Shown: one piece after another, positions 24,001-40,055 of the stretch | Numbering within the stretch: the first letter of the stretch is position 1 | Layout of the letters: each line of letters opens with the position of its first letter | Origin: a virus | IMG/VR virus record: IMGVR_UViG_3300046516_001034 | Span: 1 to 64,000 of that record | DNA length: 64,000 nucleotides | Strand: one strand, 5' to 3' | Program-made: the position numbers and the translations under genes | Notes under the pieces: model-generated | The model's database searches: none | Seen by the model: the letters and a program-made list of their open reading frames with translations, nothing else | What the model was told of the DNA's origin: nothing

Positions 24001-27000
24001 GCTGCTGGGGTATCAGAATGCAACGCAAGCTTGGAGTGGGGCTATCACGCCTGCTACTGGAGGATTTGGCGGTCAAGGGAACACTGTGAACCAAGGGCAG
24101 CAGGCGCTGGCGCAAAACCAGCAGAGCTACTACCAAGGTCTATTCGATCCCAACATGCCCGCGACGCCTGCACCTGCGACGCCCGCGCCAACAACGCCAG
24201 TGGCGACAACGCCAGCGCCGGTCGTTGACCCCACCCTTACCACGATCAATACGCCCACGATAACCAGCACTACTAGCAACGCCGCCAACGGTGGGACCAC
24301 CACGGGTGCGTATCAGCTACCTGATATCGTTGCGCCCACCTCTACGCCTGATGTAACGACGCCGACGACGACGGTTAACCCGACGCCCAATATACCTACG
24401 ACGACCGTGCCTAACACGCCCAGCACGGGGACGAGCGACATCGGCGCGACCGACACCAGCAAGAAGCCTTCTACGGGCGTGACCGCAGGCGACACCAGCG
24501 CCAGCACTGGCGCGTACGCTGGGTTTAGGCGTGGGGGAGTAACTCGCAGAGTAACTGGCTACGACGACGGTGGCGGGGTCAGCCCCGCCCCCGCTGGCAT
24601 GCTCCCCGGCTTAGGCGGCGCACAACCGATACCCCCCATTTACTATAACAACGCGACCTTCGCTCCGGCGGGTGCAGGCATCGGCAAGGGTGTGACAGTA
24701 AATTCCGCCCCCACTTTTGTCGCGGGCGCGATCCCCACCCTTCCCATGAGAAAAGGCGGCGTGGTGCGCTATGCCGATGGCGGCGCTGTTAGCGACGAGG
24801 AGATGCAATCCGCCGCTACCGATGTGGGCGACGACTACGGTGAGGGCGCTGCTGGAAGCACAGAGCAGCAGTACGCTATGGACTACCGCCCTAACGCCGA
24901 CGTGGTTGCTGGGGGCCGTAGCGGCGCGGAGCCGTCCCCCGGCGGCGGCATGGATGTGGGGGGTGCGGCTCCTCCCACGCAACAAGGTCCGCCCCCCGGC
25001 GCGCCCGCATGGACGCCGCAGGTCAACGATGGGTTAGGTAATCCTTCAAGGGGTTTGATTGGCGCGATTGCCGGGGGGCTGCACTATATTGGCAGCATGA
25101 CTGGGCTTGGCGGGCAGCAGGGCGCGCTTGCCGCCGACCCGGGGGTCCAAACCGCACGGCAGAACTTCGCTACCGGGCGGCAACTCAACGGCCAACCGCT
25201 GATGACGAAGGACGAATATTTGCATGATGTGCCGGAAGCTATTGGCGCGGACGGCCTGCACGAGGGCTTGAAGCACCTCGCCAGCATGGAGGCGATCCAT
25301 AAATTCTACCAGTACCGGGGCGAAGCCGAGAAGGCCGACCAAATGTCGGCGATGATGATGCAGGTCAGCGTTGGTTTGGCTAGCGAATATGGCAAGGAAG
25401 CCGTAGCAAGATACTATAACGGCGATCTCAAGGGCGCGGTTGAGGCTATGAACCGCTCCAAGGACGTGATCGCAGATGGTACGATAGTGAAAGCCACGGT
25501 CAACCCGGATGGGAAGACCGTCAGCGTAGCGGGCCAGAACCTCAACGGCGAAGACCTATGGCGGCAGGTGGTCGCTCCGCAGGCGATCCTAGGAGCCGCG
25601 TTGCACACGGCTAATGGCTCGCTGCCGTGGCATATGTATGAAATCTCCGCCGCTAAGTATGACCAGCGTTCCCATGATATGATCGCCGCGCGCGGGCAGT
25701 CAGCGCAGAGCGACCAAGTGAACGAAGCGATTGGCCGGATGGGGCCGGAGTTTGGCGAGCCGATTGCGCCCGCCGGGGCGCAAGTTACTCCGGCGAGTAA
25801 CGCCCCGCCAGCGCCACAACCGGCGCAACCTCGCCCGCCCACGACCGAAGCGCAAGCGCCTGCGCCTGCGATCCCCACCCTGCCTAACACGTCACCCATC
25901 CAAGATGTGGCGGGGGTAACTCCCGCCGCGCGCGGCGGCGCGAGCGGCGCACAGGGCACGGATCGAAACGCGCCTGCAACGCCTCCGATAGGCGCGGATA
26001 CGGCAGGAGGAACGCAGCCCGCGCTCCCCGGCCCCGGGCCTACCCGCGCCGCCGCAGCGGCGCTCCCGTCGCCCGACGCACAGGAAGTGGCGGCGCTCAC
26101 GCCCGAAGCCGAGCAAGCGCACTACCAGCAGATCGTAGCGACGACCAAGCCTAAGTACTTCACCGATGACGACCGGCCCATTATCGGCAATCGGCCAATG
26201 AACCGGCCCGAAGTGATGGACCAAGCAGTGCTCGCCAAGGCTTTGCCGGAAGTGAAGGCCGCTTATAAGGAGCGTTGGGATCGCTACACCAACGCGGTGC
26301 AGCAGAATAAAGCCCTCATGAGTTCTGATATCGATGGCCAGCGGCGCGACTACTCGCTTGGGATCAACACGCAGCGCACAGCGCAAGCGCAGCGCGAAGC
26401 CGACGCTCGCGCCGAACTGGGGCGGCAAGCGACCGACCGGCGCGCAGAACTAGGACGACAAGCGACCGACGCCCGCGCCGCCAAAGCAGAGGATGACCGG
26501 CTGGCGCTATCGCAGCAAGCGCCGCTGTCGCCAGAGAAACTAACTATGTTCAGCCGAACGCCGCAACCGGATAGCGGCATGACCGAAGGCTCACTGCCGG
26601 TGGATTGGTATGCGGCGTCTCCCCACTACGCGACCGACGCCAACGGCACGGCGATGGACGCCAAGACCGCCAAGCAGCGTATGATGGGCGACCTCGACAC
26701 TAAGAACGCGCAAGGTAAGATAGGCGGCGGCGTTGGCAGGATAAACCTGCTCGACAACGCGCTGCGCACTACCCAAGCGTACAACCAGCATGTCGGCACC
26801 GAAGAGCTTGCTGACTTGGTGCTTGGCGGGGCTCTCGACAAGTACGACTACGCCGCCTCGCCAACGCCTGTCAGCTTGAAGCATGACGCTCAAGGCAAGC
26901 CGATCCCCGATGGCTTCGACGAGCGCTACGCAGTACGGTTCACCCGGAAGGATGACGGTTCCGGGCGCACCATCGTCATGACGGCGGACGACTACAACAA

Positions 27001-27130
27001 CATGCACGGGATTACAATGGCTATGCGCGCAAAGAATAACGCACCCCCGATCCAACCGCCGCCAATGGCGATACCAACCGGGCCGGGACAGACCAATGCT
27101 AACGACTTAATGCTCCCCGGCATCCAGTAA
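21077..27130 (+). CDS. giant internal virion protein with tail-lysozyme domain
   Basis: 2017 aa, GTG start right after a palindrome whose right arm supplies GGAGAG. Residues about 90-225 resemble the phage tail lysozyme domain: FYVSQGYTPEGAAAIVGNW, QQENSLKGG, SAGGFQWH and a helical end, so it may open peptidoglycan during ejection. The middle is Pro/Thr-rich linker, partly duplicated, with repeated KGG/RGG...RYATGGNVTRFA cassettes. The end is a long helical region (AQAQREADARAELGRQATD). Three perfect palindromes lie in linkers (22838, 24539, 25784). Confidence 0.7.
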   Translation: MAKGKHLGSFAGGFMEGLLGVMKMQMMQQQYAALQKHYEALDAHYARQEAFEKFKYLHGEEYGKWEAGNRGAAGFEETVGNVPGGAGGVAGNAAEMRDFYVSQGYTPEGAAAIVGNWQQENSLKGGGWGGDKGTSAGGFQWHDDPSKGLYRGTGFMNWAKENNLDVNDPMTSAKYSIIDLKKNYPDLDKYLRTTNNVDEATQRFEKDFEGAGTPAMENRLSAARTVYKQPAKTAAPATATATTKPPPAMSSSGGVPVRYNGKEYDTDKDGNIIESTGRPITTSQADTGRGSYQVAGDVPIGLTTEAAERARKDLEAHRSTLPTPPGGSAADQAGTAQSESAADASRTKEYYPKETPPEEDLTHGPPPQPAYSVTAGQPAGYGPPVRAGTDVTSGEPTGVAIPSVPSLQHPVSTPYPTPYESGYPEPPPVASLQHPISKPYPVPYESGFPEPSRGGAAEVTRPVVGGDERLQPAANANAPAANATPAVALRPEPQAQALPARPGWGLIERPNIDQSQGGRGGGGPSQMGAFDFSTLWRPNPPIAQQRGATPAPQPAAQPARPDLAQRVPVAQAPQPPPRPTAVVVQPPVTPRVTDAPLPPPRPVDTSTPTPVPPPAGSGQERMISSRDEDEADADAGMAQTAQIAQMAGAIPPGPDDMAVGVRKGGPIRSRRRYAAGGNVTRFATGGAAPTSAQLADPGWQNTASTYTLPGNAPFTNQQVYDLSQTINSQPYPFLSPLSPSGSKDLTGFYGAYTPPAPVTPAPAPAPVVDPTVTPISTPALTSTTNNAANGGTTTGAYQLPDVVAPTTTPALDTTQNTTTVNPTPKTPTTIVPNITAPTTATTIDQNATAFKSLNTPSTTSGGNGSGTSDLGGTDYGDTNLNTGSYAGFRRGGRVSGAIPRYATGGNVTRFAAAGTVQPQAVQSALSAALYGPNAPYSQQQVMAGSPTMTVGQMNAANLAALTPDQQAWYNAQNAALLGYQNATQAWSGAITPATGGFGGQGNTVNQGQQALAQNQQSYYQGLFDPNMPATPAPATPAPTTPVATTPAPVVDPTLTTINTPTITSTTSNAANGGTTTGAYQLPDIVAPTSTPDVTTPTTTVNPTPNIPTTTVPNTPSTGTSDIGATDTSKKPSTGVTAGDTSASTGAYAGFRRGGVTRRVTGYDDGGGVSPAPAGMLPGLGGAQPIPPIYYNNATFAPAGAGIGKGVTVNSAPTFVAGAIPTLPMRKGGVVRYADGGAVSDEEMQSAATDVGDDYGEGAAGSTEQQYAMDYRPNADVVAGGRSGAEPSPGGGMDVGGAAPPTQQGPPPGAPAWTPQVNDGLGNPSRGLIGAIAGGLHYIGSMTGLGGQQGALAADPGVQTARQNFATGRQLNGQPLMTKDEYLHDVPEAIGADGLHEGLKHLASMEAIHKFYQYRGEAEKADQMSAMMMQVSVGLASEYGKEAVARYYNGDLKGAVEAMNRSKDVIADGTIVKATVNPDGKTVSVAGQNLNGEDLWRQVVAPQAILGAALHTANGSLPWHMYEISAAKYDQRSHDMIAARGQSAQSDQVNEAIGRMGPEFGEPIAPAGAQVTPASNAPPAPQPAQPRPPTTEAQAPAPAIPTLPNTSPIQDVAGVTPAARGGASGAQGTDRNAPATPPIGADTAGGTQPALPGPGPTRAAAAALPSPDAQEVAALTPEAEQAHYQQIVATTKPKYFTDDDRPIIGNRPMNRPEVMDQAVLAKALPEVKAAYKERWDRYTNAVQQNKALMSSDIDGQRRDYSLGINTQRTAQAQREADARAELGRQATDRRAELGRQATDARAAKAEDDRLALSQQAPLSPEKLTMFSRTPQPDSGMTEGSLPVDWYAASPHYATDANGTAMDAKTAKQRMMGDLDTKNAQGKIGGGVGRINLLDNALRTTQAYNQHVGTEELADLVLGGALDKYDYAASPTPVSLKHDAQGKPIPDGFDERYAVRFTRKDDGSGRTIVMTADDYNNMHGITMAMRAKNNAPPIQPPPMAIPTGPGQTNANDLMLPGIQ
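22838..22854. repeat. dispersed palindrome, intragenic
   Basis: GTTACTC-CGA-GAGTAAC, perfect arms of seven, in a Pro-rich linker of the 2017-aa protein. Confidence 0.85.
23368..23502 (+). repeat. direct repeat copy A
   Basis: Codes for PVVDPTVTPIST...NNAANGGTTTGAYQLPDV; about 846 bases upstream of copy B in the same gene. Diverged at third positions, so an old duplication. Confidence 0.7.
24214..24348 (+). repeat. direct repeat copy B
   Basis: Codes for PVVDPTLTTINT...SNAANGGTTTGAYQLPDI, matching copy A. Both copies lie upstream of a GxYAGFRRGG segment. Confidence 0.7.
25784..25801. repeat. dispersed palindrome, intragenic
   Basis: GTTACTC-CGGC-GAGTAAC, perfect arms of seven; read in frame as VTPASN. 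Confidence 0.85.
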
Positions 27131-27143
27131 CTCTTAGAGTAAC

Positions 27144-30100
27144 ATGCCCCTTGTCGCCTACTCAAGTGACGACCCCGGCAGCAGCCTGCCGCACGATCCT
27201 ACTTCGCTTGCCGAAGCGCCTACGACTGAGTTTCGCGGGCTCGTTTCCTACTCTAGCGACGATACGCCTGATGTAAAACATACGCCTTCTACCGCGTCGC
27301 AGGCTTCGGGATACGTTGCTGCGGGCGGCGGCGAGACCTATGGCGACTGGTGGCAGTCGGCCAAAGCAGGCATGCATGGCGCTGGCGCGACCGCAGCGAC
27401 GCTGTTTGGTAAGACCGCCGAGACGCCCGAGCAGGCGACATACTGGCAGAAGCAGGCGCAAGGGCAGCGCGAAGAAGTTAAACAAGATATAGGCGACATG
27501 ACTGCCGCAGGGCAGCAAGGCCGGGAGGGGTCGTTCTGGTCGCACCCGGTGCAGCAAACTTTAGAAGCCGCGCCGGGGTTGGTGGCGATGGGCGCGCCCG
27601 CTGTCGTGGGCGGCGCGCTGGCTGGCCCTCCCGGCGCTTTTGCCGGAGCCATGCTGGGCGGGGGACTGTATCAAGGGCCGTCGCAGGTCAGCGATTACAC
27701 CCAGCAGATCATGGACGCGCCCGAGGAGCAACTTCAGAAGAACCCTGATTACGCTTCTCTCATCGCCAGCGGATTATCCCCGCAGGATGCAAGGTTGAAG
27801 TTCGCTGACGCCACCAGCAAGGGCTTGTTCGCCAAGTCAGCCGTGATAGGGGCGCTCACTGCGGTGCCGTTTGCCGAAATGGGCGGCGGCAGCGCGGCAA
27901 AGATACTGGGCGATAAGCTGGTCACCAAGGTATTGATGGGCGGCGTTGAGGCCGCCCCGGCGATGGCCGCACAGGGCGCAGCGCAAACGCAGGTCACTGG
28001 GCAAGCGGGCTATGAAGCTGGCATACGCGGCCCGCCCACCCCAGAAGAGACTGCACAGGGCGCATGGGAAGGATTTAAAACTGGATTACAATTTGGCGCT
28101 GGGGCGGCGCTCCTGCATAGGGGCGCGCAGCCGGGCGTCAGCGCCTCCCCTACGCGTTCCTCTAGGGAGAGCGGCAAGCGGGCAAAGGAGCAAGCGACCG
28201 CCGTCGAAGAAGCCGCCAAAGCTGGCGCAGCAGCGCCTCCCAGCGGCGCGCGTGAGCCCGATAAGATTGTTGACCCCGATATCGCCGCCGCCGCCAAGGG
28301 CGAGCCGATAGTTACTCCGGGGAGTAATCAACAAGCCGAAATTGTAAAACAACCACCTCCGGTTGTACAACCAGCACCCCCACCCGCAGGGAGGGCCACA
28401 GAGGCACCGCCAGCGGGCGATACAACCGGAGGGGTATCACCCCCGCTCCCAGAGCCTCAACCCCTGCCAGCGGGCAGCGATACGGCACCCTATGTGCACC
28501 CCACGGTGCCGATTGGCGGCCCTCCAGAGCCTATCCGGCAGGGGGATCAGCGCTCCCGATGGGTGCGCCCTGCCGTGCCAGAAGGGCTGTTTGAGGGGCC
28601 TGCGCCGGTCCTAGAGAAGGGAATGCCCGGAACAGAGGGGCAAGCGCCGGAGGTCGTGGCCCCCGAGCCGCCGTCCGTCATCGCCGCCCAGCACCAAGCG
28701 CTGCTCGACCCGAACGATCCGCGCGAGGCGATGATCTACAACAAAGGCCAGCAACCCATTGAATTAACTGATACTTCTCGCTTCGGGCAAACCCGCCTCG
28801 GGGATGGCCGGGTGGTCCAGTACGACAAGCAGGGGCCGAGCGCCCTCACTCCGAAGAAGATAGGGCAGTATGCCAGAAGTGATCGGTTAAATGAGATACT
28901 ACAGCTTAGTCCTGTAAGTAAGGACGAAGCCGTTCGAACAGCGGCATCCGTGGCAGGAGAAGAGCCCGCCTTGGTGACGACCACGACCGACGCCGGAGAC
29001 AAGGTGAAGGTCGGGGCCGCCACCTCGGCGTCGGTTCCCGAAGCGGTCGCCATGCAGGAGGCGACCAAGGGGCCGGGCGACACGGTGAAGGTGGAGAACC
29101 CCGTCGCGCCGATAGCGGAGCGGTTCGCCAAGACGCGCGACGAGAACGTCGCTGCGCAGGCTGCGGCAGTTACTCCCGAGAGTAAACCGCTAACCATTGG
29201 GGAGCAAGTGGCGGCGCGCAATGCCGAGCGCGCCGCTCAAGCGCAAGCCGCCGCTCAAGCGCAAGCCGCCGAGCGCGCGACCCGTTTGGAAGCGCTCAAG
29301 CGCGACATGAACCAGCAGTTGGCGACGCCCGCTAAACAGCCGCTGGAAGACCTAAGCCCCGAAGGGGCTACGATGCAGGCGGCGCAGGCAGCGGCGCAGG
29401 AGCAGGTGCGGGGGGTTACTCCCGCAGAGGAAGCCGCTAAGCAGGGCAAGCACTGGACGACAGGGGAGCTAACCAAGAAAGAGAACGCCAACCAAGCCGC
29501 CAACGAGATCATGCAGGCGGAGCGCAACCACCCCAAGCCGGGCGAACAGCCGAACGATATCCTCGCTCGCGCCAAGGGGATCGTCGCTGAAGCGAAGGGC
29601 ATCCATGTTCCCACCGAGATAAGCGAAGAGGGCAAGCACGGCCCCGGCATGCTATTGTTGCGCGAAGCAAAGGATTTAGTCGCCAAGGATTTGCCCAAGC
29701 AGGATAAGTTTCCCAGCATGAAGGACTATGGTACGTTCCTCATGCGGGAAGGATTGATCCGCGAAGGTAAATTGGCGGAAGCATTAGAGGCGCGGCGCGC
29801 CGAAGGCAAAGAAGCCAGCGCGCTGGGCGCGCCCGCCGAGGTGAAGGCCGAGGGCGTGCGGCCCGGTCAGGAGCCGGAAGAGAAAGCGCCAGAGCCGGAA
29901 ACGGTCGCGGCGCGATTGCAGCGAGAAGGGGCCGAGCGCAAGGCCAAGGCGTACGAAGCTGAATTGGACCGCCGCAAAGCCGCCAAGGAAGCGCGAGAGG
30001 CAAAGGAAGAAGCTGAGCTGGCAGCGCAGGTTGCGGCAAGAACAAAAGCTAAATCAAAAGAAGAAACACCGGATGGCGAAGAACCAATGGGGCCGCTTAT

Positions 30101-33100
30101 CGCTGGCCGTCATTATATGACTGGCACGGCGGCGTTCAAGGTTGAGAAGACGCGGCCGAAGTGGAAGACGCAGGAAGCATCAGAAGATGCGACAGTAAAG
30201 GAGGGAAAAGAGGAAGTATTACCCGGAACTGGTGTAGAAATAGGTGGCATAACTGTTCATCCGTCGCGTAGCACTGATGCCGAAACAATAGTTAAAGAGG
30301 ACTACAAACGAGAACATTATGCTTTTGGCACACCACAGATTATGGACAAGATGCGTGATCTTGTCGTTAAAATTGCGGGCGATACGCCGGTACATTTTAT
30401 TAGCGATGTGGAAATGAGGCAGCTTACGGGTATAAAATCTTACGGCGCATTTAGTATGGATGCTCTTGACGGAAAGCCAGTCATTATTATTAACCGCGAT
30501 CTTTCAGCGCCAGATACGGCGTTTCATGAGGCTTTTCATGGCGCTACAGAAATAGCAATCAGTAAGAACCCCGGACTTGAAAATTTGATGGAGCGCCTGC
30601 GGGTTGAAGCTAATAAAAGTATGGAAGTAGCTGGTTTAAGTAAAGAGGATCGTAAAGAGCTTAGATATTATTTGGGCGACCGCAGAGAATTTCTCACTGG
30701 TATGATGACCCTTCCTCGCATGCAGGAGTTGCTTAAGGGGATTAAGATTAGCGCCGAGTTGGCGCGGGACATAGGTATTCCCAAGTGGCGCAAGATGACG
30801 ATGTGGGAAGGCGCGCTGGCGATCATTCGCGATGCGCTGGGGCTGGGGCCTAGGGACACGAGCGCCATCGAAGCCGCCATGTCGCTGAGTGAGCAACTGA
30901 TATGGCGCGATCCGCGTGGGACGGGCGAGTTGCTTGCTGCTACCGGGCGCGCAGCAGAAAAAGATATGCGCGCCAGATGGAGGATGCAACAAGCAGCCGA
31001 AGAGAAAACACCAGTTGACGCCTCGCGTTCGCGGGCAAAATACTCTGAGTTAGCGGACAAGATCACCGATGGCGTCAAGGAGCGGATCAAGGATATCTCC
31101 CCTGCTACGCACACTGTCACCGAGAAGATGCGGGCGTGGATAGATACCCCACGCGATTGGATGGAGCGCGCCAAGGAGCGCGGGTGGCGGATTGCCAGCA
31201 CTGCCGAGCGGATCATCGATCACATGGGCGAGCTTGGCGCGGATCGAGAAAAAATTCTTAAACTAAGCACGCCGGTGATGGATCGGTTGGGGCGCTTGTA
31301 CAACGAGAACGGCAACGAGTTTGGCAAGCTGGCGCGCTTGTTCGTTAGCTCCACCATCCACGGAGCCGACGCGCGCGACGACCTTGGCAAGGGACTGAAC
31401 GAGCATATCAAACCCAACAAGAAGAATATCGAGAACTCCAACTTGGAGCATTGGGACGCGATCAAGGGCAACCCGAAGGATCGCGAAGATTATAAATCCA
31501 TGCATCCCGATACGCAAGCTCTCTACAACGATACCATGGACGAGCTTAAGAAGATGAACCTGCGGGTCATCGAGGCGACGCGCAAGTCGCTGGGCGAGAA
31601 GCTTATGAACGAGATGGGCTCTTCCATCCCGCAAGAGCGTCGCGATGCCGTGCAGAAGGTTATTGATCGTAAGGAACTTACTGACGACGAGAGGAAAGAA
31701 CACGGCGACGATCCGAACATCAGAGCGCTACAAAGCTACGACGCGATGGCCAAGCGGGCCACGCTGGGCGCGTACTTCCCGCTCAAGCGCACCGAGGGCA
31801 CGCACTACGTCGGCGGCAAACACGAGTACGAGCTTCCCCAAGGAGTTACTCGCGCGAGTAACGACGAGAACGATCCCGATTACCACCGGCTCGTGTTCAA
31901 CGACCGCAAGGCGGCGTACGACTTTGATCCTGACCTGCCGACCACCCCCAGTATCCAGCACTACATTCAAGACGCCAGCGGCAAGCGGGAGTATGTGAGC
32001 GCCGACGAGGCGACCAGCACTCCCGGCGCGAAGCATGGGCAGGAGTACCATGTGCTGGTCAATCCTCGCGACGTGCGGTTCGTCAACGGCAACGTGGAGG
32101 GCGCGCGGGTTAAGCGCCAGATGGAGCAAGAGGGGATGAAGGATGTCTCCGTGCAGCCGCGCAAGAACCAAGAGGTGTGGCAGTACGGCGTCAACTCCAG
32201 CCATGTCACCGCGATCATGAAGCGCCTCAACAAGATGGACATGACCGACGCCGAGCGCGCCGGGTTGGGCGACGCGATCAAGCACGTAGCGGCTTCTTCA
32301 ATGCCGGGTTCACGCTTGTCGCGTGGGTTCCTGCATCGTGACCGCACCGGGGGCGCTGGCGGCGACATTATTGCGTCGCTCGATATGCATCGGCGTACTT
32401 CTGCGGGGCTGCAGGCGATGGCCGGGCATCGTAACGAGATCGACGCTTCGCTAGAGAAGATGAAGCAATACGTGGACGACCACCCGAACCACAAAGACGT
32501 GGGCGACATGCGGCAGATGGTCAACATGTACGACGATAGAATTAACAACTTCCAGAAGGACGCCCTAAGCGACATTAACGTCAATAAGAACTGGAACGCG
32601 ATCCGCGCCTACACCACGCTCAACGATCTGGTGTCGCCCGCGTTCTTTTTGCTGCATCAACTGCACATACCCCTTACCGTGTTCCCCCATCTCGCGGCGG
32701 AGCATGGCATCGGGCTGGCGACCAGAGTTACTCTCGGAGTATACCGGGACATGCTGGGCAGCGAGTTGCCGATGGCCGTCAAGGCGATGGGCAGGGCGGC
32801 GTTCAAGGCGTGGCGGTACAACCACCAACCCACCGACTTTATCGACGCGCTCAAGAACGAGGGGAGATTATCCGGCGACGAGCGAAGCATGATCGATTGG
32901 GGGGTGGCGCACGACTTTGCTCACAGCACCGGCATCGACTTCTCGCAGGCGTATGTCAGCCAGAGGGGGCTGGATAGGTTCGCTTCCAAAGCGCGCAACT
33001 TCTCGCAGGAGTTCATTGGCTCTGCCGATGCGTTCAATAAGGTCAACTCCGCGCTGATGTTCTACCGCGCCGCCATCGAAAAGGGGATGAAGGGCGAAGA

Positions 33101-34118
33101 CGCTTACCGCCATGCGTGGGATAACGTCGCTAAAACACAAGGGCAGTACACGTCGTTCCAGCGTATGGGTATGTTCCGCGACGCCCGCATGCAGACGGTG
33201 TTCCAATATAAGCAATACCCGATCTTGATGGCTAAGATGATTGCCAAGGCGATGTATAACTCATTCGCCCCCGGGGTAGAGTGGGAGACGCGCGCCCGCG
33301 CGCTTAGAACGTTTGGCTTGATGACCCTATCGGCAGGCACGATGTCGGGCGTGCAGGGCGGCACGGCATATCCGATCCGCTTGGCGGACGATCTGTTGCA
33401 TGTACTAGGTATTACCGACGGGTGGGAAACCCACATGGACGAGTTGCGCCGCTCGCTGGCTAGCTCGATGGGGCCGGAGGGCGCGACTGCGTTGATGGAT
33501 GGATTGGGCGGGCTAGCAGGCATCTATGCCGGGCATCGTGGCGGCATCAGCGATCCGCTTGGGCTCAACTACATGCTGGAAACCGCCAAGAGCGATACGG
33601 ATTGGTACAAGTATTTGGCTGGCCCTCCCGGCGGCCTTGGGCATAATCTTATCACTGGTTTGGGCGCACTCCGGCAGGGCGATCCCGACACGGCGCTTAA
33701 GAACCTACTTCCTCGTGTCGCCACCGATCCGATCAAAGCTTACGAAGAATACAATCACGGCGTTTCCACCCAGCGTGGTGCGATCATCTCGCCCCCCGTC
33801 TCTGCGCCGGAGGCGGTGCTGAAAGCGCTAGGGCTTACCACCATCGAGGAGACGCATGCGCGTGAGGCGCGGGCGGCAGTAGGCCGGGAGCGCACTGAGC
33901 AGCAAACCGAGCGACAGAATATCACTAAGCTATGGCAATCGGGAGATCGCGCCGGGGCCATCGCTGCCGTGCATAAGTTCAACCTCGCTTACCCCAGCCA
34001 GCACATCACGGTGGCGAGCCTCAATAAACTAGCGACAAGACCCACGGTGCTTGGCTATCCCGAAACGCCTAAGAACCGCAGAGATTTGGAAGAGAGGGCG
34101 CACGCTTATGGTTTCTAG
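27144..34118 (+). CDS. giant polyvalent ejection-type protein with zincin-like motif
   Basis: 2324 aa. N-terminus repeats YSSDD twice and includes several Ala/Gly hydrophobic helices (residues about 140-330), suited to membrane insertion on ejection. A Pro-rich linker follows, then a Glu/Lys/Ala helical region, then a compact domain with HEAFH at residues 1128-1132, the HExxH zinc-peptidase signature, and a later Glu-rich helix (GDRREFLTG). The C-terminal 900 residues are helical with hydrophobic patches, typical of large T7 gp16-like or polyvalent ejection proteins. Preceded by TAACTC-TTA-GAGTAAC-ATG. Confidence 0.65.
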   Translation: MPLVAYSSDDPGSSLPHDPTSLAEAPTTEFRGLVSYSSDDTPDVKHTPSTASQASGYVAAGGGETYGDWWQSAKAGMHGAGATAATLFGKTAETPEQATYWQKQAQGQREEVKQDIGDMTAAGQQGREGSFWSHPVQQTLEAAPGLVAMGAPAVVGGALAGPPGAFAGAMLGGGLYQGPSQVSDYTQQIMDAPEEQLQKNPDYASLIASGLSPQDARLKFADATSKGLFAKSAVIGALTAVPFAEMGGGSAAKILGDKLVTKVLMGGVEAAPAMAAQGAAQTQVTGQAGYEAGIRGPPTPEETAQGAWEGFKTGLQFGAGAALLHRGAQPGVSASPTRSSRESGKRAKEQATAVEEAAKAGAAAPPSGAREPDKIVDPDIAAAAKGEPIVTPGSNQQAEIVKQPPPVVQPAPPPAGRATEAPPAGDTTGGVSPPLPEPQPLPAGSDTAPYVHPTVPIGGPPEPIRQGDQRSRWVRPAVPEGLFEGPAPVLEKGMPGTEGQAPEVVAPEPPSVIAAQHQALLDPNDPREAMIYNKGQQPIELTDTSRFGQTRLGDGRVVQYDKQGPSALTPKKIGQYARSDRLNEILQLSPVSKDEAVRTAASVAGEEPALVTTTTDAGDKVKVGAATSASVPEAVAMQEATKGPGDTVKVENPVAPIAERFAKTRDENVAAQAAAVTPESKPLTIGEQVAARNAERAAQAQAAAQAQAAERATRLEALKRDMNQQLATPAKQPLEDLSPEGATMQAAQAAAQEQVRGVTPAEEAAKQGKHWTTGELTKKENANQAANEIMQAERNHPKPGEQPNDILARAKGIVAEAKGIHVPTEISEEGKHGPGMLLLREAKDLVAKDLPKQDKFPSMKDYGTFLMREGLIREGKLAEALEARRAEGKEASALGAPAEVKAEGVRPGQEPEEKAPEPETVAARLQREGAERKAKAYEAELDRRKAAKEAREAKEEAELAAQVAARTKAKSKEETPDGEEPMGPLIAGRHYMTGTAAFKVEKTRPKWKTQEASEDATVKEGKEEVLPGTGVEIGGITVHPSRSTDAETIVKEDYKREHYAFGTPQIMDKMRDLVVKIAGDTPVHFISDVEMRQLTGIKSYGAFSMDALDGKPVIIINRDLSAPDTAFHEAFHGATEIAISKNPGLENLMERLRVEANKSMEVAGLSKEDRKELRYYLGDRREFLTGMMTLPRMQELLKGIKISAELARDIGIPKWRKMTMWEGALAIIRDALGLGPRDTSAIEAAMSLSEQLIWRDPRGTGELLAATGRAAEKDMRARWRMQQAAEEKTPVDASRSRAKYSELADKITDGVKERIKDISPATHTVTEKMRAWIDTPRDWMERAKERGWRIASTAERIIDHMGELGADREKILKLSTPVMDRLGRLYNENGNEFGKLARLFVSSTIHGADARDDLGKGLNEHIKPNKKNIENSNLEHWDAIKGNPKDREDYKSMHPDTQALYNDTMDELKKMNLRVIEATRKSLGEKLMNEMGSSIPQERRDAVQKVIDRKELTDDERKEHGDDPNIRALQSYDAMAKRATLGAYFPLKRTEGTHYVGGKHEYELPQGVTRASNDENDPDYHRLVFNDRKAAYDFDPDLPTTPSIQHYIQDASGKREYVSADEATSTPGAKHGQEYHVLVNPRDVRFVNGNVEGARVKRQMEQEGMKDVSVQPRKNQEVWQYGVNSSHVTAIMKRLNKMDMTDAERAGLGDAIKHVAASSMPGSRLSRGFLHRDRTGGAGGDIIASLDMHRRTSAGLQAMAGHRNEIDASLEKMKQYVDDHPNHKDVGDMRQMVNMYDDRINNFQKDALSDINVNKNWNAIRAYTTLNDLVSPAFFLLHQLHIPLTVFPHLAAEHGIGLATRVTLGVYRDMLGSELPMAVKAMGRAAFKAWRYNHQPTDFIDALKNEGRLSGDERSMIDWGVAHDFAHSTGIDFSQAYVSQRGLDRFASKARNFSQEFIGSADAFNKVNSALMFYRAAIEKGMKGEDAYRHAWDNVAKTQGQYTSFQRMGMFRDARMQTVFQYKQYPILMAKMIAKAMYNSFAPGVEWETRARALRTFGLMTLSAGTMSGVQGGTAYPIRLADDLLHVLGITDGWETHMDELRRSLASSMGPEGATALMDGLGGLAGIYAGHRGGISDPLGLNYMLETAKSDTDWYKYLAGPPGGLGHNLITGLGALRQGDPDTALKNLLPRVATDPIKAYEEYNHGVSTQRGAIISPPVSAPEAVLKALGLTTIEETHAREARAAVGRERTEQQTERQNITKLWQSGDRAGAIAAVHKFNLAYPSQHITVASLNKLATRPTVLGYPETPKNRRDLEERAHAYGF

Positions 34119-35698: not shown

Positions 35699-35959
35699 AT
35701 GCCGAAGATACTGGAGCGACTGGTAGGCCAGCTACAAGCAAAGGGCAAATCGAAGTCCAGCGCCTACGCCATTGCTACGTCAGCGCTCCAGAAGAGCGGC
35801 AATTTGAAGAAGGGTACGCAGGAGCCTACCTCTAAAGGAGTAGCAAGGGGAGCGATGACCCCCGAAAAACGCGCAGAAGACCGGCAAGCAAAGTACTCGG
35901 GTGGGAAACCAACCGATTACAAGTACAATGCTAAGAGCAACACGGCAACCAAAAAGTAG
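35699..35959 (+). CDS. small basic phage protein
   Basis: 86 aa. KGKSKSSAYAIATSALQKSG forms a helix typical of many small phage proteins of unknown role; the tail is Lys/Asn/Thr-rich (KPTDYKYNAKSNTATKK). Preceded by TGGAGAG. Ends eleven bases before the next start. Confidence 0.65.
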   Translation: MPKILERLVGQLQAKGKSKSSAYAIATSALQKSGNLKKGTQEPTSKGVARGAMTPEKRAEDRQAKYSGGKPTDYKYNAKSNTATKK

Positions 35960-35969
35960 GAGAACTCCA

Positions 35970-36386
35970 ATGGCAACCATTAGATTGAAGCCGGGTGAAA
36001 CGGCTCTCGTAGTAGCTCAAGACCCCAGTCTTGTGATTGGCGGCGGACCAATGCCGGGGGGCGGCGATCAGCCGGTCGATCCGGGGTACGGGATTGATCT
36101 GGGGCTTGGCATCTGGGGTCCAACCGACCCGCGACCGACCAACCCAATCGTGCTGCCGCCGCCAGTCCCTGTCGATCCGCCGCCGACAGAGCCGGTCGAT
36201 CCCGGCTATGGCATCGACGTGGATGCTGGCTATACGCGCCCCACGCATCCGATTGTATTGCCGCCCCCGGCACAGGGAAGGCCCCCGGGAAACTGGGAAC
36301 TGAAGGTCGCATGGACGCCCGTGACCGGGTGGGTTGTGGTCGCCATCCCGACCGGCGAGCATCCAACGCCGTCGAGGAGAAGGTAA
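35970..36386 (+). CDS. Pro-rich repeat protein
   Basis: 138 aa; ATG 35970 after AGGAG. A unit PVDPGYGID...RPTNPIVLPPP occurs twice (second copy PVDPGYGID...RPTHPIVLPPP), followed by a short beta domain (NWELKVAWTPVTGWVVVAI). Possibly a virion surface or accessory protein. The TAA stop begins a dispersed palindrome that abuts a terminator. Confidence 0.6.
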   Translation: MATIRLKPGETALVVAQDPSLVIGGGPMPGGGDQPVDPGYGIDLGLGIWGPTDPRPTNPIVLPPPVPVDPPPTEPVDPGYGIDVDAGYTRPTHPIVLPPPAQGRPPGNWELKVAWTPVTGWVVVAIPTGEHPTPSRRR

Positions 36387-36440: not shown

Positions 36441-36623
36441 ATGCATATCGAGGTTAAAGTCATCTATCCAGAAATGGAACGTGCGGAAGTATCCCGCTGG
36501 CTGCGCGATGTAGCGGATACGGTGGATAACTTCGGCACCGGGGACGATATTTATTCAGTGGTTGATTTATTGGATACGGGAGTTAAGCGCGAATTTAAGA
36601 TCATGGAGAAAAAAGATGATTGA
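36441..36623 (+). CDS. small acidic protein
   Basis: 60 aa, beta-alpha pattern (HIEVKVIYPEMERAEVSRWL), acidic, with a charged end. Lies between a terminator and the endolysin gene, with an eight-base overlap onto the endolysin start. Function unknown; transcription may begin in the short gap at 36421-36440. Confidence 0.55.
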   Translation: MHIEVKVIYPEMERAEVSRWLRDVADTVDNFGTGDDIYSVVDLLDTGVKREFKIMEKKDD

Positions 36624-37182
36624 CCGCAAAGCATTCTTTGAAAGTATCCGCGAGAACTTATTCGAGGGTGTTCTTAGCCAGCGCCAAGTCGATGGCATGA
36701 ATGCGGTCATGGATACGTGGGAGCAGTATCATTTCGACAAGGATATTCGCTGGCTGGCGTACTGCATGGCGACCGCGCACCACGAAACAGCCTATGTGTG
36801 GGACGCGATTGAAGAGTACGGCAAGGGATCGGGTAAAGAGTACGGCGCGCCTGCTGGCCCTTACGGCGAGTGTTATTACGGTAGGGGGTTCGTGCAGCTA
36901 ACGTGGCTGGAAAATTATCAGAAGGGGGAGATTGTTCTCAAGGAGAACTACGACGTTGAGTGCCCGATGGTGCAGTACCCGCATAGGATGCTGGAACTGG
37001 AGCCTGCGGCATTGATACTTTTTGATGGGATGATTGGAGGTTGGTTCACGGGTGTGGGGCTGCCGATGTTTTTTAATGCGACGACCGAAGACCCATACAA
37101 CGCCCGCAAGATCGTCAACGGTTTGGATAAAGCCAGCACCATTCAAAACCACTACTACAAGTTCAAGGACGCACTCACATGA
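36616..37182 (+). CDS. GH19-type endolysin (chitinase-like muramidase)
   Basis: 188 aa. Cleaves peptidoglycan glycan strands at lysis. GH19 marks: AHHETAYVWDAIEEYGKG with a likely catalytic Glu at 57 and EE at 66-67, then YYGRGFVQLTW at residues 87-97, and RKIVNGLDKA near the end. No signal peptide, so it would need a holin or similar pore for export. ATG 36616 chosen rather than upstream starts because the family begins here; GGAGAAAA precedes it. Confidence 0.85.
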   Translation: MIDRKAFFESIRENLFEGVLSQRQVDGMNAVMDTWEQYHFDKDIRWLAYCMATAHHETAYVWDAIEEYGKGSGKEYGAPAGPYGECYYGRGFVQLTWLENYQKGEIVLKENYDVECPMVQYPHRMLELEPAALILFDGMIGGWFTGVGLPMFFNATTEDPYNARKIVNGLDKASTIQNHYYKFKDALT

Positions 37183-37370: not shown

Positions 37371-37532
37371 TCAAGAGTTATCCAAGAAAAACATTCGCCC
37401 GGTGCCGACGATCACCAAGACCGATCCAAGCAGGAACGTCACCCAGTTAATCAAGGGGTAATCGGCGTAGCCAGTCGCCAAGCTGACGGCGAGCAGCATG
37501 AGGCCGATGGCGACGAGCGCGCGGCTGATCAC
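37371..37532 (-). CDS. tiny two-helix membrane protein
   Basis: 53 aa, GTG start overlapping the stop of the upstream tiny gene. Helices LVAIGLMLLAVSLATG and WVTFLLGSVLVIVGTG. Last of four consecutive tiny membrane-protein genes read in reverse; it converges on the forward lysis gene with only three bases between stops. Confidence 0.55.
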   Translation of the reverse strand: MISRALVAIGLMLLAVSLATGYADYPLINWVTFLLGSVLVIVGTGRMFFLDNS

Positions 37533-37663
37533 ACCAACCACGCGATGACGATGACCATCAGGGCCATGCCGATGACGGCGACGATAGCCATTGTGATCGC
37601 CTCTCGCATGGGATACTTTGTTGGCGGGAAATCAAAGCCGTCGTCATCAGTCGGACGGCTCAT
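37529..37663 (-). CDS. tiny membrane protein
   Basis: 44 aa: acidic N-terminus (MSRPTDDDGFDFPP) then one helix (AITMAIVAVIGMALMVIVIAWLV). Its start overlaps the upstream gene by 17 bases and its stop overlaps the downstream start, indicating coupled translation. Confidence 0.55.
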   Translation of the reverse strand: MSRPTDDDGFDFPPTKYPMREAITMAIVAVIGMALMVIVIAWLV

Positions 37664-37796
37664 CTTCGAGATCCATCTTAATGGACAACGCCAGCACGCC
37701 CACCAAAAGCACGAACACGAGAAGGGCAATGCCTCCGACCACCTCGAAATTGTAGATCATCAGGTCCGCGAACGCCTGCGTTTTCCCGTCAACCAT
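37647..37796 (-). CDS. tiny membrane protein
   Basis: 49 aa: one helix (VGGIALLVFVLLVGVLAL) with an acidic end (KMDLEDEPSD). The start is preceded by GGAGGTGAGG, a good ribosome site. Four bases separate it from the preceding tiny gene. Confidence 0.6.
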   Translation of the reverse strand: MVDGKTQAFADLMIYNFEVVGGIALLVFVLLVGVLALSIKMDLEDEPSD

Positions 37797-37800
37797 CCCC

Positions 37801-37896
37801 TCACCTCCAAAGATAAATCAAACCCGTCACGGCCATGGCGGACGCTACCCATGCCATGATCACGTAGAGAAGAACCCAACTGCCTTCGTAGGACAT
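37801..37896 (-). CDS. tiny membrane protein
   Basis: 31 aa, essentially a single helix (WVLLYVIMAWVASAMAVTGL). First of the four-gene reverse cluster. Accepted because spacing, ribosome sites and membrane character agree across all four. Confidence 0.45.
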   Translation of the reverse strand: MSYEGSWVLLYVIMAWVASAMAVTGLIYLWR

Positions 37897-37960
37897 GCCC
37901 GTTTAGCACCCTGTTAACGTCCACCTGCTGAACGGAGCCGAAAACTCACGGACGATCAAA

Positions 37961-37978
37961 GCGGCGGGGGACCACCGC
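37961..37978 (-). terminator. GC-rich hairpin after PEP-CTERM gene
   Basis: Read in reverse, GCGGTGG pairs with CCGCCGC (one G-U) around a four-base loop and is followed by TTTGAT. The short T-run suggests partial termination before the tiny membrane genes. Confidence 0.45.
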
Positions 37979-38776
37979 TCAGATTGCGAGACGCGCGCCG
38001 CGCTTCTTCCAGCCGACGAGGCTCATCAACGCGAAGCCAGCGCCCATCATCACCCATGTGCTAGGCTCCGGCGTGCCGGGGATCGATGTGGTGTTAACGA
38101 ACCCGGCGTTGGTCCACGACGTGTCGAACGCGGTGATATCTAATTTACCGTTGTTCTTGACTGAGATATCCACAGCCAAAGGCGCAATGATCGTGCCAAT
38201 GCTGAATGCGCCATTGACGGTCAGGAAATCGGCGTCGCTGTTGAATCCGCCGCCCGGCACGTTGAACGTCGCTTCTTCGATTTGAAACGTGGTTGGCACG
38301 GTCAACCCAAGCAGGTCATACTCGGTCTTGATGTTGGCGAACGACACGCTGTTGTCGCCAAGCCCGACCTGATCGCCAAACTTCTGACCAGCGGCGAGGG
38401 TGATCACCGGGCCATCGAACAGGCCATTGGTCGAATCGAACGCCTGCGCGGTGAACACCGAGGTCGGGCCTAGGGTGAACGCTCCCAGCGGGCCGACGCC
38501 TGTCGCGCCAGTAATCGTCGGCAGAGCCGTGCCGAGAGGATCGATGAAAAAGATCCTGATCGGATCATTGATGCTGTGGTTGCCGACTTCAGTGATGGTG
38601 AACGTGTTGCTGTCGTTCAGCAGCACTGGATCAGAACCTGTCGCGGTTCCACTGGTGACATGGAACGCGGTCGGATCGCAGATCGTGTTGCCGCTGGCGT
38701 CGGTGGTGCAGGCGCTTTGGGCATAAGCGGGAAGAGCGAACGCAGAGATTACTCCCGCGAGTAAAAGCTTTCTCAT
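37979..38776 (-). CDS. PEP-CTERM sorting-signal protein 2
   Basis: 265 aa. Signal peptide MRKLLLAGVISAFALPAYAQ; mature beta-rich Ser/Thr/Gly/Asn domain with two cysteines near its start; C-terminal PGTPEPSTWVMMGAGFALMS, continuing LVGWKKRGARLAI, which is the PEP motif, membrane helix and basic tail recognised by exosortases. Such proteins are exported, cleaved after PEP-CTERM recognition and placed at the cell surface or in the exopolysaccharide. No exosortase gene is visible here, so host machinery must be used. Second gene of a two-gene unit with its paralogue. Confidence 0.8.
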   Translation of the reverse strand: MRKLLLAGVISAFALPAYAQSACTTDASGNTICDPTAFHVTSGTATGSDPVLLNDSNTFTITEVGNHSINDPIRIFFIDPLGTALPTITGATGVGPLGAFTLGPTSVFTAQAFDSTNGLFDGPVITLAAGQKFGDQVGLGDNSVSFANIKTEYDLLGLTVPTTFQIEEATFNVPGGGFNSDADFLTVNGAFSIGTIIAPLAVDISVKNNGKLDITAFDTSWTNAGFVNTTSIPGTPEPSTWVMMGAGFALMSLVGWKKRGARLAI

Positions 38777-38881
38777 TATTGTTTTTCCTTATTGTTGAAG
38801 CGGTCAGGGGAGGGGACGGGAGACAACTTGCGGTAGTCTTGCCCCTCCCCCTTCCTTCCGCCATCTTTGAGGGGGATATTC

Positions 38882-39580
38882 TCAGACAGCGAAACGCGGT
38901 GTGCGACGCTTACGCAAGCCCAACGCGCCCAAGAGCGCGAACCCGCCGCCCATCAGCACCCATGTGCTGGGTTCCGGCACCGCGCTGGCGTCCATCGAGA
39001 CGTTCTGGACGCCGACGATAGCCCCCGGCTGAAGGGTGAGCGAGAGGCTCTCGGCCAGCCCATACGGCCCCGTCACAGGATCGAAGCCGCTGCCGTTGAA
39101 CGAGAACGAATGTGGGCCAGTCAGGAGAGACGACAGGAAGTCGCCAATGTCTGTGCCGGTAGGAACGCCAGTCGCCGTGCCGTTGAGCGTGTTGCCGCCA
39201 TCAGCGAAGAACGAACCGCCCAGCATCGCTGAACCACTATCGACGCCGATGGTGCCGGTCAGCAAGAAGTTCGCAGACGGCCCAAGGAAGCCGTTCGCGC
39301 CAGCAATAATGTCGAGCGTCTGCACCGTCCCCGTCGTGTTGGTGATCGTGATGTTGCCTTCGCTCAAGCTGTTGGGGTTGGTCCCCCTCGATGCGGCGCT
39401 CACCGAAACGGTGATGCCGTCGAGGTTGGAGCCGATGAGGGCCGCAGCATTGTTGCCGGTAGCCGCCTCGAACCCGCCGGGGTCCGCCGCGTTCCACAGG
39501 ATGAGCGCCGTGTTCGCAGCGTACACAGGTGTAGCCCCCACTGCGCCGAGAAGCGCTGCGGTTAATAGCAATCTTTTCAT
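38882..39580 (-). CDS. PEP-CTERM sorting-signal protein 1
   Basis: 232 aa. ATG 39580 chosen for its signal peptide (MKRLLLTAALLGAVGATPVYA) and GGGGA site; ATG 39592 would add four residues. Mature domain Gly/Ser/Thr/Asn-rich, beta-like, no cysteine. The C-terminus has AVPEPSTWVLMGGGFALLG, then LRKRR. The domain differs from that of the neighbour, but the sorting end is nearly identical (PEPSTWV-MG-GFAL). A consensus-like promoter (39622-39650) stands 42 bases upstream, so the pair can be expressed apart from the replication genes. Confidence 0.8.
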   Translation of the reverse strand: MKRLLLTAALLGAVGATPVYAANTALILWNAADPGGFEAATGNNAAALIGSNLDGITVSVSAASRGTNPNSLSEGNITITNTTGTVQTLDIIAGANGFLGPSANFLLTGTIGVDSGSAMLGGSFFADGGNTLNGTATGVPTGTDIGDFLSSLLTGPHSFSFNGSGFDPVTGPYGLAESLSLTLQPGAIVGVQNVSMDASAVPEPSTWVLMGGGFALLGALGLRKRRTPRFAV

Positions 39581-39621
39581 GATGGTCCCCATATGAACGG
39601 GGCAAGACGCCCCTGTTTTCC

Positions 39622-39728: not shown

Positions 39729-40055
39729 TCATTCCCCATGTGGCAGAAGGAGAATAGCTTTTTTGCGCTGTATTCCCTCATATAGCTCTAACTGCTCTTT
39801 TGTCTCTAATGGGATCGTCCATACCGCGCTTACTAGCGCAGGCAGCACGAAATCTACCCCAACACTCTTATCGCTACGATTAGGAGGAACAGGAGCAGGA
39901 TCGCTATGCCTACTATATACGCGTATTCGTTCTTGATGCCGAACATATGAGCCCCCACAGTGTTGGGGAGTAGGGTAGCGCCACACACGAAAACAGTGCG
40001 CTGACGTTGGTTGCGACAGCAAAATAGCCCCTAGCGCAATGATAGTTGATTTCAC
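39729..40055 (-). CDS. exported small protein
   Basis: 108 aa. N-terminal hydrophobic segment MKSTIIALGAILLSQPTSA looks like a signal peptide; mature part begins HCFRVWRYPTPQHCGGSY with two cysteines and is rich in Pro/Arg, then a hydrophobic stretch (FVLPALVSAVWTIPL). Overlaps the upstream gene by four bases. Likely periplasmic; function unknown. Confidence 0.6.
   Translation of the reverse strand: MKSTIIALGAILLSQPTSAHCFRVWRYPTPQHCGGSYVRHQERIRVYSRHSDPAPVPPNRSDKSVGVDFVLPALVSAVWTIPLETKEQLELYEGIQRKKAILLLPHGE

What the first reader, a model, noticed from the sequence alone, without database searches (positions are those of the whole stretch)
37979..39580. Two PEP-CTERM proteins encoded by a phage
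Both proteins have a signal peptide, a beta-rich Ser/Thr/Gly domain, and a C-terminus with PEPSTWV, a membrane helix and a basic tail, which is the exosortase sorting signal. I know of such proteins from Gram-negative bacteria making exopolysaccharide, not as usual phage genes. They have a consensus-like promoter and may be expressed apart from replication genes. They could alter the host surface or matrix: block superinfection, change adhesion, or disguise the lysing cell.
Basis: partly seen in the sequence, partly recalled or inferred. Interest (0 to 1): 0.88.

Follow-up and report, generated by a model that had tools for sequence, protein, structure and literature searches.

The report
Phage surface proteins using host exosortase
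This phage carries two secreted proteins that end in the tag bacteria use to fix proteins to their outer surface, and more than fifty other environmental phage contigs of several unrelated lineages carry similar genes, so phages appear to borrow the host's own sorting machinery to coat infected cells.

Summary
Window ORFs 38882-39592(-) (PEP1) and 37979-38776(-) (PEP2) each have a signal peptide, a beta-rich body and a C-terminal PEPSTWV-helix-basic tail that passes Pfam PF07589 (27.1 and 22.3 bits; cut-off 20.7). The record is a podovirus-like phage; its closest isolates, Rhizobium phages, lack a detectable PEP homologue.

This is not a one-off. IMG/VR scans found 66 PEPSTW ORFs on more than 50 contigs of several unrelated phage lineages. 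All 37 records tested pass PF07589; none encodes an exosortase. PEP1 belongs to a 42-member family with no close cellular copy in four overlapping sets of about 300-400 alphaproteobacterial genomes and none in 50,697 isolate phages. The PEP module is 84% DNA-identical to that of an otherwise different phage and is under purifying selection.

Best reading: a moron gene pair whose products are exported by Sec and sorted to the cell surface by the host's exosortase, changing the infected cell's surface (superinfection or debris-adsorption exclusion most likely). Sorting is inferred from the signals; purpose is inferred; the host is not proven, and only 21 of 377 genomes of the presumed host order have an exosortase. 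I found no published report of phage-encoded PEP-CTERM proteins.

The parts
38882..39592 (-). PEP1: secreted PEP-CTERM protein, 236 aa as ORF (232 aa from the likely start at 39580)
   Evidence: ORF; PF07589 27.1 bits; cluster of 42 phage proteins; fold
39518..39580 (-). PEP1 signal peptide (from Met5, AxA site after residue 25)
   Evidence: heuristic; helix in model
38981..39511 (-). PEP1 beta-sandwich (jelly-roll) body, residues 28-204
   Evidence: AlphaFold model; CBM-like folds
38885..38977 (-). PEP1 PEP-CTERM tail (PEPSTWV, helix, RKRR, TPRFAV)
   Evidence: PF07589; TIGR02595
37979..38776 (-). PEP2: second secreted PEP-CTERM protein, 265 aa
   Evidence: ORF; PF07589 22.3 bits; six-member phage cluster
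37982..38071 (-). PEP2 PEP-CTERM tail (PEPSTWV, helix, KKR, GARLAI)
   Evidence: PF07589
39622..39650 (-). Promoter-like site TTGACA-17-TATAGG upstream of PEP1
   Evidence: not listed by the consensus scan; TTGACA-17-TATGGC in L020
38805..38851 (-). G+C-rich hairpin between PEP1 and PEP2, stems kept in seven phages
39729..40055 (-). Small secreted Cys protein (CxxxxxWxYPxPQxC), upstream neighbour
   Evidence: family in 7 loci, just upstream of the PEP gene in several
37371..37896 (-). Four tiny membrane ORFs downstream of PEP2, part of the shared DNA module
   Evidence: blastn to L011 and L005 reaches 37380-37381; ORFs
36562..37182 (+). Endolysin, converging on the PEP module
   Evidence: phrog_181 8e-21; same type within 1.2 kb of the PEP gene in L005, L036, L044, L046, L051
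40273..43209 (-). Primase/helicase-like replication gene upstream of the module

Best explanation
PEP1 and PEP2 are phage-encoded substrates of the host's exosortase. (1) They are transcribed apart from the capsid genes, at the end of the replication operon, perhaps from their own promoter. (2) They are exported by Sec through an N-terminal signal peptide. (3) They are held in the inner membrane by the C-terminal helix and basic tail. (4) The host exosortase cuts at the PEP tail and passes the body to the cell surface or extracellular polysaccharide. (5) The altered surface blocks adsorption of further phages, or re-adsorption of progeny to infected cells and debris, as T5 Llp does by other means. 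The sequence features behind steps 2-4 are shown; the sorting itself is inferred from what is known of the family; steps 1 and 5 are inference. The genes behave as mobile morons exchanged between unrelated phage lineages.
For: The sorting signal is significant in both window proteins and in all 37 phage records tested. These records bring 1-2 substrates but no exosortase, so any processing must be by the host. Bodies fall into several unrelated clusters while signal peptide and tail are kept, so what is shared is delivery. Purifying selection: dN/dS 0.13-0.16 for window PEP2 and 0.21-0.33 for window PEP1. Window 37647-39070 is 84% identical to L011, whose fetched 21 kb otherwise matches the window only in a few short stretches. 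The matching sites in isolates hold no PEP gene: RHph_TM27A junction, Ochrobactrum phage OH terL-portal boundary. PEP1 body has a carbohydrate-binding-module-like fold. T5 Llp is a phage envelope protein that prevents superinfection and adsorption to lysed fragments (PMC9586334).
Against: No host is identified, and only 21 of 377 genomes of the presumed order have exosortase. There are no expression, localisation or phenotype data. A jelly roll is a very common fold and does not prove sugar binding. In some phages the gene lies beside lysis genes or between terL and portal, which fits late expression, when exclusion of superinfection would matter less (debris shielding would still matter).
Confidence: 0.48

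Rival explanations
1. Matrix modification: the proteins are displayed by exosortase but act by binding or re-anchoring host exopolysaccharide, changing aggregation or the spread of virions in flocs and biofilm.
For: A bacterial PEP-CTERM protein, PepA, turns soluble into cell-bound exopolysaccharide and drives flocculation (PMC9850573). PEP1 is weakly like floc_PepA over residues 39-231 (24.3 bits) and has a CBM-like fold.
Against: Tighter exopolysaccharide would seem to hinder progeny release; no glycan ligand is known; the PepA match is far below its cut-off of 80.
Confidence: 0.2
2. Decoy: abundant phage substrates occupy the host exosortase and block sorting of host PEP-CTERM proteins, loosening the host matrix so that progeny escape.
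For: Several unrelated bodies share the same tail, which is all a decoy would need; exosortase is absent from the phages.
Against: The bodies are under purifying selection and one subfamily (LQIEVFDN) has a nearly constant body with varying tails; a pure decoy would not need that.
Confidence: 0.12
3. Lysis accessory: the tail serves only as an inner-membrane anchor and the periplasmic body helps lysis, like a spanin or holin partner, without exosortase.
For: PEP genes lie near endolysins in several phages, and the shared DNA module includes tiny membrane ORFs.
Against: The PEPSTW motif itself is kept in all families, which a plain anchor would not need; in many phages no lysis gene is adjacent; the genes are often on the opposite strand from the lysis genes.
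Confidence: 0.1
4. Artefact: bacterial genes joined to phage contigs by misassembly.
For: All records with PEP genes are metagenome contigs; no isolate phage has one; L061 looks bacterial.
Against: Dozens of contigs from many metagenomes have phage genes around the PEP gene, with recurring neighbours, and the family bodies were not found in bacteria.
Confidence: 0.02

Closest known systems
Bacterial PEP-CTERM/exosortase proteins (PF07589, TIGR02595; NF038126 FxDxF family; floc PepA NF033554)
   Same: Signal peptide, beta-rich body, PEP motif, helix, basic tail. One phage cluster (ITVENIGS type, L016) passes the bacterial FxDxF model (53.3 bits, cut-off 50).
   Different: Encoded by phages that carry no exosortase; the PEP1 and PEP2 bodies have no close cellular relative found here; the genes move between phages.
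Phage T5 Llp and other envelope-located superinfection-exclusion proteins
   Same: Phage protein predicted to act in the envelope of the infected cell.
   Different: Llp is a periplasmic lipoprotein acting on one receptor (PMC9586334); these are predicted to use the exosortase pathway. No homology is claimed and no exclusion has been shown.
Phage morons
   Same: Extra gene at a junction, absent from relatives, with a promoter-like site, shared between unrelated phages.
   Different: The products carry a host surface-sorting tag; both lytic and temperate phages carry them.

Membership tests
PEP-CTERM proteins | C-terminal region scoring above the curated model cut-off | tested here: met
   PF07589 27.1 and 22.3 bits against 20.7; TIGR02595 25.3 and 16.4 against 16
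PEP-CTERM proteins | Hydrophobic helix and basic residues after PEP, at the extreme C-terminus | tested here: met
   Helix 210-227 and RKRR in the PEP1 model; same layout in PEP2 sequence
PEP-CTERM proteins | N-terminal signal peptide | tested here: met
   Heuristic only: basic n-region, hydrophobic stretch, AxA site; no trained predictor was available
PEP-CTERM proteins | Exosortase in the same cell | tested here: inconclusive
   None in 37 phage records; the host is unknown; 15 of 20 PEPSTW-bearing genomes but 21 of 377 of the order have it
PEP-CTERM proteins | Cleavage and surface location | not testable with these tools
   Needs experiment
PEPxxWA-CTERM subfamily (NF035944) | Score above cut-off 35 | tested here: not met
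   28.5 and 20.8 bits; relatives L008, L030, L032 pass
Floc PepA (NF033554) | Score above cut-off 80 | tested here: not met
   24.3 bits for PEP1
Phage superinfection-exclusion envelope proteins | Expression blocks adsorption or DNA entry | not testable with these tools
   Function only inferred
Phage morons | Extra gene at a variable site, absent from close relatives | tested here: met
   No PEP gene at the matching site in RHph_TM27A; shared module with an otherwise different phage
Phage morons | Own promoter and terminator | tested here: inconclusive
   TTGACA-17-TATAGG upstream, not listed by the consensus scan; hairpin without a U-run between the genes

The most novel reading that the evidence does not exclude
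Exosortase hijacking is a general phage strategy in exosortase-bearing hosts: unrelated lytic and temperate phages have repeatedly taken up, exchanged and kept substrates of the host's exosortase in order to display phage proteins on the infected cell or its matrix.
Probability: 0.6. Interest if true: 0.86.

Novelty: new variant of a known kind. Interest (0 to 1): 0.78.

Why it matters
Exosortase/PEP-CTERM is a large sorting system with few known functions, and phages are not known to use it. A phage gene class dedicated to it would be a new route for viruses to rebuild the surface of infected Gram-negative cells, would predict exosortase-bearing hosts for uncultured phages, and would offer small, selected substrates for studying exosortase itself.

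Tried and rejected
Contamination or misassembly: rejected, since dozens of contigs have phage genes around the PEP gene with recurring neighbours; one record, L061, was set aside as probably bacterial. Cellular origin: two genome-contig scans and body-only profile searches in 397 genomes of the order of Roseiarcus, 385 of its class, 342 of the Bradyrhizobium family and 298 of the Roseiarcus family (the sets overlap) gave only weak or partial matches. The best, L152, is a distant bacterial PEP-CTERM protein (25 bits). The positive control worked, but that profile (A4) detects only the PEP1 (NTALTLWN) and LQLSI-type bodies, not the LQIEVFDN, ITVENIGS or TDFSANG families, so nothing is claimed for those. 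INPHARED isolates: no match to PEP1, PEP2 or three other family members. Plasmids: no match to PEP1. Anti-phage defence models: none. Rfam: none. Phage-encoded exosortase: none in 37 records. PEP2 structure model too poor to use (pLDDT 55). Host clue from tRNA: no tRNA in the window. Papers: no report of phage-encoded PEP-CTERM found; the Microcystis virus paper speaks of host genes. One helicase query was mis-typed and not repeated.

Full report
WHAT WAS CHECKED. Window ORFs 38882-39592(-) and 37979-38776(-) exist as described. The window is almost the whole of a 64,898-base IMG/VR virus record. Both proteins pass the curated cut-offs of PF07589 (27.1 and 22.3 bits against 20.7) and TIGR02595 (25.3 and 16.4 against 16). 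A strict version of the motif occurs in two window ORFs and in none of 60 Markov shuffles. Signal peptides were judged by heuristic only. PEP1, modelled with 35 relatives, gives a confident model (pLDDT 83): N-terminal helix, beta-sandwich, C-terminal helix. The nearest solved folds are jelly rolls, many of them carbohydrate-binding modules or tailspike C-terminal domains (Z about 9). This fold is common and shows no function by itself.

THE PHAGE. Hallmarks: head-tail adaptor/portal, major head protein, internal virion protein, helicase, polymerase, terminase, endolysin. No integrase match. The closest isolates are four Rhizobium phages (head protein 63%, polymerase 40%, primase 28% aa identity), then KPP25-like Pseudomonas phages for the polymerase. 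This suggests a Hyphomicrobiales host but does not prove it.

THE SITE. In the window the late genes (+) end in an endolysin and a 62-aa membrane protein; facing them on the minus strand lie tiny membrane ORFs, PEP2, PEP1, a small secreted protein and the primase. In Rhizobium phage RHph_TM27A the same primase/late-gene junction holds only a 94-aa ORF, and neither PEP protein has a match in any isolate phage. Phage L020, of the window's lineage by three shared replication genes, has a PEP gene of a different subfamily at the same site, with TTGACA-17-TATGGC upstream (sequence). In another lineage the PEP gene lies between terminase and portal (for example L005, L057), two genes that abut in Ochrobactrum phage OH; in Sinorhizobium phage phiM5 that spot holds a putative peptidase. 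A third arrangement is helicase, PEP, then a convergent operon (L006, L010, L022, L033, L043). A fourth puts it downstream of a terminase gene in a run of shared genes (L030, L050, L056, L059).

THE CLASS. Scans with alignments of PEP1 and PEP2 gave 7 and 56 IMG/VR loci, partly the same, and a script found 66 PEPSTW ORFs in them after L061 was set aside. With tails removed they fall into one cluster of 42 (PEP1 family, three subfamilies), one of 12 (whose member L016 passes the bacterial FxDxF PEP-CTERM model), one of 6 (PEP2), one of 3, and singletons. PF07589 passes in 37 of 37 records tested, with 1-2 matches each. Exosortase PF09721 is absent from all 37. Seven of 37 have an integrase match, five over the cut-off, so both lytic and temperate phages seem to be involved. 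Many records are incomplete, so absences there are weak. Lineages were told apart by gene content, not by a phylogeny.

MOBILITY AND SELECTION. Window 37647-39070 aligns to L011 at 84% DNA identity, while the rest of the 21 kb fetched of L011 aligns only in a few short stretches. L003, L005 and L008 share parts of the same module. Synonymous change exceeds non-synonymous change: dN/dS 0.13-0.16 for window PEP2 and 0.21-0.33 for window PEP1; some pairs are near saturation at synonymous sites. Between PEP1 and PEP2 lies a G+C-rich hairpin (z -2.7) whose stem sequence is kept with differing loops in seven phages.

HOST SIDE. A scan of genome contigs for PEPSTW tails returned mostly Bradyrhizobium, other Hyphomicrobiales and sphingomonads, which match almost only by the tail. 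Fifteen of 20 such genomes have exosortase, but only 21 of 377 genomes of the order of Roseiarcus do. So exosortase is uncommon in the presumed host order, which makes host identity the decisive unknown. Phage tails often end in R(F/L/Y)A-type residues (36 of 66), a form also seen in some bacterial tails (17 of 133); that is only a hint.

CELLULAR ORIGIN. A body-only profile found no close cellular copy of PEP1 in sets of 397, 385, 342 and 298 genomes, which overlap; the same profile finds phage copies at E about 1e-70 or better. It does not detect the more distant subfamilies, so nothing is claimed for those.

LYSIS NEIGHBOURHOOD. An endolysin of the window's type lies within 1.2 kb of the PEP gene in six records (window, L005, L036, L044, L046, L051; L044 and L046 are near-identical there). 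A second endolysin type (phrog_894) lies about 0.3 kb away in L020 and 1.2-2.7 kb away in L031 and L064. In several it is on the opposite strand. This may only reflect the place where two operons converge.

MECHANISM. Sec export, inner-membrane hold and exosortase cleavage follow from the signals and from established knowledge of the family; none was tested. Since the phages bring substrates but no enzyme, any processing must be by the host. Superinfection or debris exclusion is preferred because the products would sit on the host surface, bodies vary between families while delivery is kept, and phage T5 achieves exclusion with an envelope protein (PMC9586334). Matrix modification is the main rival, since a bacterial PEP-CTERM protein ties exopolysaccharide to cells (PMC9850573).

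NOVELTY. The paper library shows no report of phage-encoded PEP-CTERM proteins, and 50,697 isolate phage records hold no match to the five members tested. The library lacks most subscription papers, so priority is not certain. PEP-CTERM proteins and phage morons are both known kinds; their combination is what appears new.

Noticed in passing
window 39729-40055(-); L011 9055-9330; L020 8996-9310; L035 8540-8824; L014 12348-12587; L044 12499-12786(-): A family of small secreted proteins with CxxxxxWxYPxPQxC and a C-terminal lysine/leucine-rich stretch recurs in PEP-carrying phages, often just upstream of the PEP gene; no Pfam or PHROG match for the window member.
   Followed up: partly
window 38805-38851(-): G+C-rich hairpin between PEP1 and PEP2, stem kept in seven phages, no U-run after it; L003 seems to have two in tandem.
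   Followed up: partly
window 37371-37896(-): Four tiny membrane-protein ORFs travel with the PEP module; possibly holin-like, but the two tested have no PHROG match.
   Followed up: partly
L145 449-3532 (RHph_TM27A EVB29_077): Annotated as 'putative integrase', but it is the counterpart of the window's primase/helicase-like protein.
   Followed up: no
window 21077-27130 and 27144-34118: Two giant ORFs of 2017 and 2324 aa in the late region; RHph_TM27A has a 2307-aa ORF in the corresponding place.
   Followed up: no
L061 6031-10938: IMG/VR record from an isolate genome with at least four PEP-CTERM genes with Bradyrhizobium-like tails; probably bacterial DNA rather than phage.
   Followed up: partly
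window 35901-36386(+); L005 5888-6280; L016 3503-4159; L021 10093-10641: Pro/Gly-rich proteins with repeated 'HPDQGLPGG' or similar stretches lie next to endolysin or PEP genes in several of these phages; the two tested have no PHROG match.
   Followed up: no
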